Below the pieces are notes generated by a model, which saw nothing but the letters and a program-made list of their open reading frames with translations, did no database searches and was not told where the DNA came from. Shown here one piece after another: positions 37,107 to 38,677 of a stretch of 64,000 nt of DNA. Made by a program: the position numbers and the translations under genes. Positions within the stretch are counted from its first letter, which is position 1. Each line of letters begins with the position of its first letter. Source of the DNA: Edwardsiella tarda ATCC 15947 = NBRC 105688 (lineage in GTDB: Bacteria > Pseudomonadota > Gammaproteobacteria > Enterobacterales > Enterobacteriaceae); assembly GCF_003113495.2 (NCBI RefSeq), contig NZ_CP084506.1, positions 1,984,001-2,048,000 of the forward strand, given 5' to 3'.

Positions 37107-38677
37107 ATGCATTCGAGTCACCCCATCGTTACCGTATTACAGCGCCGCGCCGCCTACACCGCCGATCCGACGCTGCCCTTCGAACAGTTGTGTGGCCAAC
37201 GCCCGGCCACCCTATTACTGGAATCCGCCGAGATCGCCAGCAAGCGCCATCTGAGAAGCCTGTTGATCATCGACAGCGCCTTACGCATCACCGCGCGAGG
37301 ACGTCAGGTGACGCTAGAGGCCCTCAGCGCTAACGGCTGCGCCCTGTTGACCCACCTGTACCGTACGCTTCCCGCCGACCTCCTTTGCCAGCAGCAACCC
37401 CAAGGTTGCCTCTTGACCTTCCCGACGCCCAGCGCCGAGGTGGACGAGGAGAGCCGGCTACGCACGCCCTCGGTGTTCGATGCCCTGCGTGCACTGCTCG
37501 CGACGCTGCCGACCCCGCCCGACGAACGTGAAGCCCTGCTACTCGGCGGCCTGTTCGCCTACGATCTGGTCGCCGGTTTCGAGGCGCTGCCCTCCCTCAC
37601 GGCGGGACCGCGCTGCCCCGATTTCTGCTTCTACCTGGCGGAGAGTCTGTTGATCCTCGACCATCGCCAGGGCAGCGCCCGCTTACAAGCCAGTCTGTTC
37701 AGCGCCGACCCCGCCGAGCGGCGGCGGCTAAGCCAGCGTCTAGCCACGCTGCAGAGCAGGCTGACACACCTGCCGCCCCCCGTCCGGCGCCGATCGGCGT
37801 GGCCCCGACGGTCAGTGTCGATCGGGATGATGCCGCCTTCGCGGACATGGTGCGCACACTCCAACAAGCCATCCGCGCCGGCGAGATCTTCCAGGTCGTC
37901 CCCTCGCGCCGCTTCTCTCTGCCCTGTCCCGCGCCGCTGGCGGCCTACCGCCAGTTGAAGCGGAGTAACCCCAGCCCGTACATGTTCTTCATGCAGGATC
38001 GCGATTTCACGCTATTTGGCGCGTCGCCGGAGAGCGCGCTGAAGTACGACGCCGACAGTCGACAGATCGAAATCTATCCCATCGCCGGGACCCGACCGCG
38101 CGGGCGCCATGCCGATGGCCGCCTCGATACCGATCTCGATGGCCGCCTCGAACTGGAGATGCGCACCGATCCCAAGGAGCTGGCGGAGCATCTGATGCTG
38201 GTCGATCTGGCGCGCAACGATCTGGCACGCATCTGTGAACCCGGCTCGCGCTACGTCGCCGAGCTGACCCAGGTCGACCGTTACTCCGTGGTGATGCACC
38301 TGGTTTCGCGAGTCGTCGGCACCCTGCGCGCCGATCTCGATGCCCTACACGCCTATCAGGCCTGCATGAATATGGGCACCCTGAGTGGCGCGCCTAAGGT
38401 CCGCGCCATGCAACTGATCGCCGCCTGCGAAGCGCGGCGGCGCGGTAGCTACGGCGGTGCCGTCGGTTACATGACGGCGCACGGTGATCTGGATACCTGC
38501 ATCGTCATTCGCGCGGCCTACGTCGAAGAGGGCATCGCCAGCGTACAGGCTGGCGCCGGTGTGGTACTCGACTCGCAGCCCCAGGCCGAGGCCGAGGAGA
38601 CGCGCAATAAGGCCAAGGCGGTACTCAACGCCATCCTCCAGGCGCATGGCGCCGACCAATACGCACAAGGAGCATGA
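37107..38677 (+). pseudogene. trpE: Anthranilate synthase component I, trpE, frameshifted
   Basis: This should be a 520-residue chorismate-converting subunit. The sequence matches TrpE from MHSSHP at 37107, with the Trp-binding LLLESAEI near residue 38, in one frame to about 37781. From there the match continues in the frame one base back, through GEIFQVVPSRRFSLPCP, PIAGTRPRGR, ELAEHLMLVDLARNDLARIC and GAVGYMTAHGDLDTCIVIRAA to a stop at 38675-38677. The break falls at six C (37776-37781); one more C would restore one continuous frame. The first frame otherwise runs on to 37958 with unrelated residues. No other damage is visible, which suggests a recent indel, a sequencing error or slippage. 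Confidence 0.85.

What the first reader, a model, noticed from the sequence alone, without database searches (positions are those of the whole stretch)
37776..37781. trpE is split by a one-base frameshift at a run of six C
TrpE similarity runs in one frame up to this C-run and continues in the -1 frame directly after it, with no other defect. One extra C would give an uninterrupted protein. The promoter, operator, attenuator and the other five trp genes look intact. The choices are a sequencing error, a very recent loss giving tryptophan auxotrophy, slippage at the C-run acting as an on/off switch, or programmed -1 frameshifting. Overlap of the trpE stop with the trpG start makes polar effects possible.
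Basis: seen in the sequence. Interest (0 to 1): 0.75.

Follow-up and report, generated by a model that had tools for sequence, protein, structure and literature searches.

The report
Broken tryptophan gene in Edwardsiella
One gene needed to make tryptophan is put out of frame by a one-base slip at a run of six C; at least one other sequence carries the same break while other copies are whole, so this looks like an ordinary, recent gene loss rather than a sequencing slip or a clever switch.

Summary
TrpE reads to residue 225 in one frame (37107-37781) and continues in the -1 frame straight after the C6 run at 37776-37781. Four of four other Edwardsiella genomes have it uninterrupted (524 aa), as has a database protein named E. 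tarda (P0121, 523 aa), from which the two halves differ at only 3 of 523 residues. So the gene has not decayed further. Another database protein (P0241, cluster of 4) has the same break and out-of-frame tail with two other residue differences. A one-off assembly error is therefore unlikely, though a shared systematic miscall is not excluded. trpE is the only frame change among 121 ORFs compared in 400 kb. The other trp genes, TrpR, tryptophanase and three aromatic amino acid permeases are open; the genome's other two chorismate enzymes are PabB and MenF, not a spare TrpE. Most likely a real, recent, within-species loss of anthranilate synthase, tolerated because tryptophan is taken up. Programmed frameshifting is poorly supported: no canonical slip site, unremarkable folding, uninterrupted relatives. 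A reversible switch is not excluded, but the tract is short and of a common kind. Species name, auxotrophy and mechanism are inferred.

The parts
36878..36911 (+). trp promoter -35 TTGACA (36878-36883) and TrpR-operator-like ACTAGTTTACTAGTAC (36896-36911)
   Evidence: read by eye; the names rest on recall of the E. coli trp control region; the ACTAGTTTACTAGTAC stretch is identical in all 5 Edwardsiella sequences aligned
36945..37016 (+). trpL leader peptide ORF, MTLDAHFPLLCGGWRANPPWAVG, two separated Trp codons
37047..37069 (+). attenuator terminator: GC-rich hairpin followed by six T
   Evidence: by eye; CCCGCAT..GCGGGCTTTTTT kept in 5 of 5 Edwardsiella sequences; the leader region 36945-37072 folds better than all 200 shuffles, z -3.32; no Rfam trp leader match at E <= 1
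37107..37781 (+). trpE 5' part, in frame, 225 codons (N-terminal domain)
   Evidence: 223/225 identical to intact P0121
37776..37781 (+). run of six C where the reading frame is lost, in the linker between the two TrpE domains
   Evidence: no invariant residue between R211 and D242 in 21 TrpE sequences
37782..37958 (+). out-of-frame tail (58 codons) and premature stop
   Evidence: the same tail, with one difference, is found in P0241
37782..38677 (+). trpE 3' part, undamaged but in the -1 frame (chorismate-binding domain); its first codon after the run starts at 37781
   Evidence: 297 of 298 residues identical to P0121
38674..39312 (+). trpG, intact; start overlaps the trpE stop
39303..40319 (+). 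trpD, intact, separate from trpG
40340..41716 (+). trpCF, intact
41761..42954 (+). trpB, intact
42951..43757 (+). trpA, intact

Best explanation
A real one-base slip in a short C-tract has put trpE out of frame in some strains of (by inference) Edwardsiella tarda while others keep it whole. The 5' half is made as a 283-aa product that ends in a meaningless tail; the chorismate-binding half is not translated, or only by rare chance events, so anthranilate synthase component I is lost. The cell should then be unable to make tryptophan from chorismate but should still use anthranilate or indole (trpGDCBA intact) and take tryptophan up. Polarity on trpG-A from the 0.7 kb left untranslated is expected but not shown. 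Shown: the frame break, its sharing with at least one other sequence, intact copies in four congeners and in a protein named E. tarda, no other decay, open downstream genes, open tnaA, trpR and permeases. Inferred: loss of enzyme activity, auxotrophy, slipped-strand origin, weak selection in a tryptophan-rich host niche, and the species name itself.
For: Frame break at C6 with four of four congeners open. Intact protein named E. tarda, P0121, the representative of a cluster of 48 whose other members I did not see; the window differs from it at 3 of 523 residues. P0241, the representative of a cluster of 4, counted on 3 contigs (longest 27,214 b), has the same break and tail at 281/283 identity. 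No spare TrpE: the genome's three Chorismate_bind matches are this gene, PabB and MenF. Of 180 reference ORFs, 121 were found in a 400-kb stretch of this genome, and one of the 121 shows a frame change, trpE. trpG-A complete. tnaA, TrpR and three aromatic amino acid permeases over cut-off are open. [quoted passage not shown]
Against: No reads, no growth test and no DNA of the other carriers were available. Lack of decay also fits a still-useful gene, that is a reversible or leaky state. P0241's source is masked; its 4 members may include the window's own protein, so the number of other carriers is at least one but otherwise unknown. The passage on amino acid requirements does not name tryptophan, and the genome paper of strain EIB202 (then called E. 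[quoted passage not shown]
Confidence: 0.73

Rival explanations
1. Sequencing or assembly error: homopolymer miscall in this genome, and the same systematic miscall in the assemblies behind P0241.
For: Homopolymers are the usual place for such errors; only a single site is involved; the cluster with an intact representative has 48 members, the broken one 4 (members not seen one by one, and pipelines that leave frameshifted genes out would bias this).
Against: The same break in a sequence that differs at two residues; one of these (Arg-96) is shared with P0121 and G002, so it is a true variant, not noise. In 137 G000 ORFs matched intact in at least one relative (138.8 kb, of 322 ORFs) the assembly reads 3 C7 and 5 G7 runs in frame; that set was chosen for being intact. 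Only 1 of 121 ORFs found shows a frame change.
Confidence: 0.1
2. Reversible switch: the C-tract gains and loses a base often enough that trpE is a contingency locus, with on and off cells in one population.
For: The break is at a mononucleotide run; on and off alleles both exist; no shared derived residue in the compared stretch groups the two broken haplotypes apart from the intact one, so recurrent slips are possible; neither half has decayed. PMC3932018 suggests phase variation for C. pecorum PLD genes with poly(G)/poly(C) tracts of 5-19 (passage), so short tracts are not ruled out.
Against: Tract of six, common in this genome (95 C6, 19 C7, 2 C8 on the + strand in 400 kb) and shorter than usual phase-variable tracts (recall; the same PMC3932018 calls phase variation less likely for tracts of at most 8 in other genes). 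The tract is not kept in the four congeners. A biosynthetic gene is an unusual target (recall).
Confidence: 0.09
3. Expression is rescued by slippage on mRNA: programmed -1 ribosomal frameshifting or transcriptional slippage at the C-run gives some full-length TrpE.
For: The C-run allows the P-site Pro-tRNA to re-pair after a -1 step (sequence); transcriptional slippage at A/T runs is reported to rescue frameshifted genes in Buchnera and Blochmannia (PMC3017870, passages); a downstream stem of -23.2 kcal/mol is predicted.
Against: No X XXY YYZ heptamer in the right phase (codons CTG CCG CCC CCC GTC); downstream folding z -0.96 and -0.27, within shuffles; no Rfam frameshift element at the run (one match far below its gathering score lies elsewhere, at 38408-38459); congeners are uninterrupted. 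The tracts in PMC3017870 are A or T runs, many of 9 or more bases.
Confidence: 0.05
4. Split enzyme: the two domains are made as separate chains and assemble.
For: The break falls in the variable linker between domains, and a GTG in the -1 frame lies at 37799 just before the second domain.
Against: No purine-rich ribosome-binding site seen upstream of 37799 (by eye); the 5' product carries a 58-residue foreign tail; relatives are single-chain.
Confidence: 0.03

Closest known systems
Anthranilate synthase component I, TrpE of enterobacteria (NF010079 / TIGR00565; solved structures 1i1q, 1i7q)
   Same: Both halves belong to it; operon place and sequence are ordinary.
   Different: Reading frame broken in the interdomain linker, so no single chain is encoded.
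Single-indel frameshifts at homopolymers as a first step of gene loss (Blochmannia, PMC3017870, passages seen)
   Same: One indel in a mononucleotide tract, rest of the gene undecayed.
   Different: There A/T tracts in AT-rich endosymbionts, with possible transcriptional rescue; here six C in a bacterium that is not a reduced-genome endosymbiont, with intact copies elsewhere in the species.
Phase-variable contingency loci with C/G tracts (PMC3932018, passages; otherwise recalled)
   Same: Slipped-strand change at a C-run, on and off alleles seen.
   Different: Tract shorter than usual, housekeeping biosynthetic gene, no evidence of switching within a population.

Membership tests
TrpE (anthranilate synthase component I) | both domains present and conserved | tested here: met
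TrpE (anthranilate synthase component I) | one uninterrupted reading frame of about 520 codons | tested here: not met
   split in two frames. By NF010079 score the 5' ORF has 218.5 bits, under the cut-off of 471, while the 3' ORF alone has 579.2, over it
pseudogene by recent frameshift | intact orthologues in close relatives | tested here: met
   4 of 4 other genomes of the genus and P0121, representative of a cluster of 48
pseudogene by recent frameshift | loss of function | not testable with these tools
   needs growth and enzyme tests
sequencing artefact | break absent from other sequences of the species | tested here: not met
   P0241 has the same break
sequencing artefact | many frameshifts in the same assembly | tested here: not met
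   1 of 121 ORFs found; control genomes 1 of 105 and 0 of 113
sequencing artefact | raw reads disagree with the assembly at the run | not testable with these tools
   no reads
phase-variable locus | unusually long repeat tract | tested here: not met
   six C; 95 such runs on the + strand in 400 kb
phase-variable locus | mixed tract lengths within one population | not testable with these tools
   no reads
programmed -1 frameshifting | in-phase X XXY YYZ slippery heptamer | tested here: not met
   codons CCG CCC CCC GTC
programmed -1 frameshifting | stimulatory structure downstream | tested here: inconclusive
   a stem of -23.2 kcal/mol is predicted but is within shuffles, z -0.96, 39 of 200 as good
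programmed -1 frameshifting | frameshift conserved among related species | tested here: not met
   4 of 4 congeners uninterrupted

The most novel reading that the evidence does not exclude
trpE is a slow genetic switch in E. tarda: the C-tract in the linker flips repeatedly between in-frame and out-of-frame, so populations hold tryptophan makers and non-makers, with the break always at a spot that leaves both domains undamaged and the change reversible.
Probability: 0.08. Interest if true: 0.6.

Novelty: new member of a known kind. Interest (0 to 1): 0.27.

Why it matters
It suggests tryptophan synthesis being lost within a species that lives on animals and keeps tryptophanase and tryptophan uptake, and it offers a simple test of whether a short C-tract in a biosynthetic gene reverts often enough to matter. 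For annotation, it is a reminder that gene sets that omit frameshifted genes hide such alleles, so their frequency in the species is not known.

Tried and rejected
C-terminal fragment search: no protein near Edwardsiella identity (best 86%) among the 120 listed of 358; uninformative, because candidates over about 511 aa are excluded by length and fragments may be absorbed into the full-length cluster. P0122 (630 aa) looked like a possible variant but is a more distant TrpE with an internal duplication; dropped. First DNA alignment had three congeners in the wrong orientation; repeated correctly. Plasmid searches with two small contigs and 8 kb of the third did not name the strain. The complete genome of E. 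tarda SC002 (PMC10034365, passages) is another strain: its chromosome is 3,662,469 b, this one 3,640,682. Papers: none on a trpE break in Edwardsiella was seen in the listings, of which 35, 42 and 54 were capped at 20 rows (of 1,223, 197 and 32); this says nothing about papers not held. A structure model of intact P0121 has low confidence (mean pLDDT 53.7) and is used only to note that no helix or strand is predicted for residues 221-236 or 239-241. In one search this genome had 12 'broken' ORFs of 121: one frame change (trpE) and 11 with stop codons inside one alignment. I looked at those 11 and set them aside, since the count was of frame changes; many look like mispredicted starts or wrong-frame ORFs, but I did not resolve each. 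The control genomes had 5 (G004, plus 1 frame change, of 105) and 6 (G001, of 113) such stops; the G004 stretch holds 4,227 masked or unknown bases. ORFs were called mechanically, so some of the 121 may not be genes. A second stretch of the genome was not surveyed. My notes number one substitution 95; it is residue 96.

Full report
What is there. The window lies in a 3.80-Mb genome in 4 contigs. The trp operon runs from a TrpR-operator-like site and an attenuated leader to trpA at 43757. Its first gene is split: ORF 37107-37958 carries TrpE residues 1-225 and then a foreign tail, while the remainder of TrpE lies in the -1 frame to 38677. The frame changes at six C, 37776-37781.

Who it is. The genome itself is not named. 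An intact TrpE that its source names Edwardsiella tarda (P0121, 523 aa, representative of a cluster of 48) differs from the two halves at residues 96, 110 and 331 only. The nearest other genome in the genus, G002, has 94% identity over the 3' part and the remaining three 85-86%. I infer E. tarda.

Is the break real? Four lines bear on it. First, intact copies: 4 of 4 other genomes of the genus and P0121; the other 47 members of its cluster were not seen, and at 90% clustering they may include another species or fragments. Second, a search with the 5' fragment found P0241, a 283-aa protein with the same break and the same out-of-frame tail, differing at residues 96 and 228, in a cluster of 4 sequences, its representative counted on 3 contigs of at most 27,214 bases. 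The window's own contig is 3.64 Mb, so P0241 comes from elsewhere. Its source is masked, and the 4 members may include the window's protein. Third, the assembly: of 180 reference ORFs 121 were found in a 400-kb stretch and one of the 121 has a frame change, trpE; the same test gave 1 of 105 in G004 and 0 of 113 in G001. In-frame stops inside alignments (11, 5 and 6 ORFs) were set aside. Fourth, 137 of 322 ORFs, chosen as intact against at least one relative, contain 3 C7 and 5 G7 runs read in frame; this shows only that such runs are not always miscalled. Together these make a one-off error unlikely; a shared systematic miscall remains possible.

How unusual. In one genome per genus of the family, 86 of 119 have a TrpE match at E <= 1e-100, and 84 of the 86 have it in an open frame of at least 521 aa; the exceptions are this genome and G030. 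Among 80 named loci, the best 80 of the genome-contig search, one more, L047 (Pantoea brenneri), is frame-split, near residue 188, with no long homopolymer seen there. So broken trpE turns up now and then.

Age. Judged against P0121, P0241 and G002, the window has one derived residue in the 5' half (Gln-96) and none in the 3' half; the other two differences are changes of P0121. The gene has not decayed. P0241 has its own change at residue 228 of the broken product. No derived residue in the compared stretch joins the two broken haplotypes, so a single origin and repeated slips are both open.

Mechanism. Loss of TrpE is the simplest reading. The rest of the pathway is complete. TrpR, tryptophanase and three aromatic amino acid permeases over cut-off are open in this genome, one permease directly beside tnaA. 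The genome's other two Chorismate_bind proteins are PabB (716.9 bits, cut-off 622) and MenF (512.4, cut-off 488), so there is no spare TrpE. A review says Edwardsiella has NAD and amino acid requirements (PMC11124366, passage), without naming tryptophan; against this, the EIB202 genome paper suggests that strain is highly self-sufficient in amino acids (PMC2764856, passage).

Against programmed frameshifting: the codons CCG CCC CCC GTC give no X XXY YYZ heptamer in phase, folding downstream is ordinary (z -0.96 over 50 bases, -0.27 over 80), Rfam shows no frameshift element at the run and congeners are uninterrupted. Against a switch: C6 occurs 95 times and C7 19 times on the + strand of 400 kb, and the tract is absent from the four congeners. 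Neither point excludes slow reversion; one paper considers tracts from 5 bases up as possibly phase-variable in other genes (PMC3932018).

Place of the break. Residues 212-241 hold no invariant position in 21 TrpE sequences, and the two profile-matched parts meet there. A slippery proline run can arise in such a linker with little cost, which may be why the break is there and why both domains remain undamaged. The GTG at 37799 would allow a separate second chain on paper, but I saw no ribosome-binding site (by eye).

Verdict. Confirmed observation; most likely a recent within-species loss; moderate to low interest.

Noticed in passing
36945-37016; also the leaders in L005, L006, L007, L008: The trp leader peptides of all 5 Edwardsiella genomes examined lack the tandem Trp codons: two separated Trp codons here and in G002, one in the other three. 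By a similar scan 73 of 80 other enterobacterial loci have a small ORF with Trp-Trp; the 7 without include Pantoea, Buttiauxella and Franconibacter. How attenuation senses tryptophan here is open.
   Followed up: partly
L047:2820-2900: trpE of Pantoea brenneri LMG 5343 is also split in two frames, near residue 188, with no long homopolymer there.
   Followed up: no
G003 (whole genome): One of the five Edwardsiella genomes, G003, has no tryptophanase match while the other four have one. G003 and G002 have two aromatic amino acid permeases over cut-off, the other three have three; G002 and G003 are drafts of over 100 contigs.
   Followed up: no
38674-39312 and 39303-40319: trpG and trpD are separate overlapping genes here, not fused as in E. 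coli (fusion recalled; the NF007073 profile spans both).
   Followed up: no
36996-37001: A second run of six C lies inside the trp leader peptide ORF.
   Followed up: no
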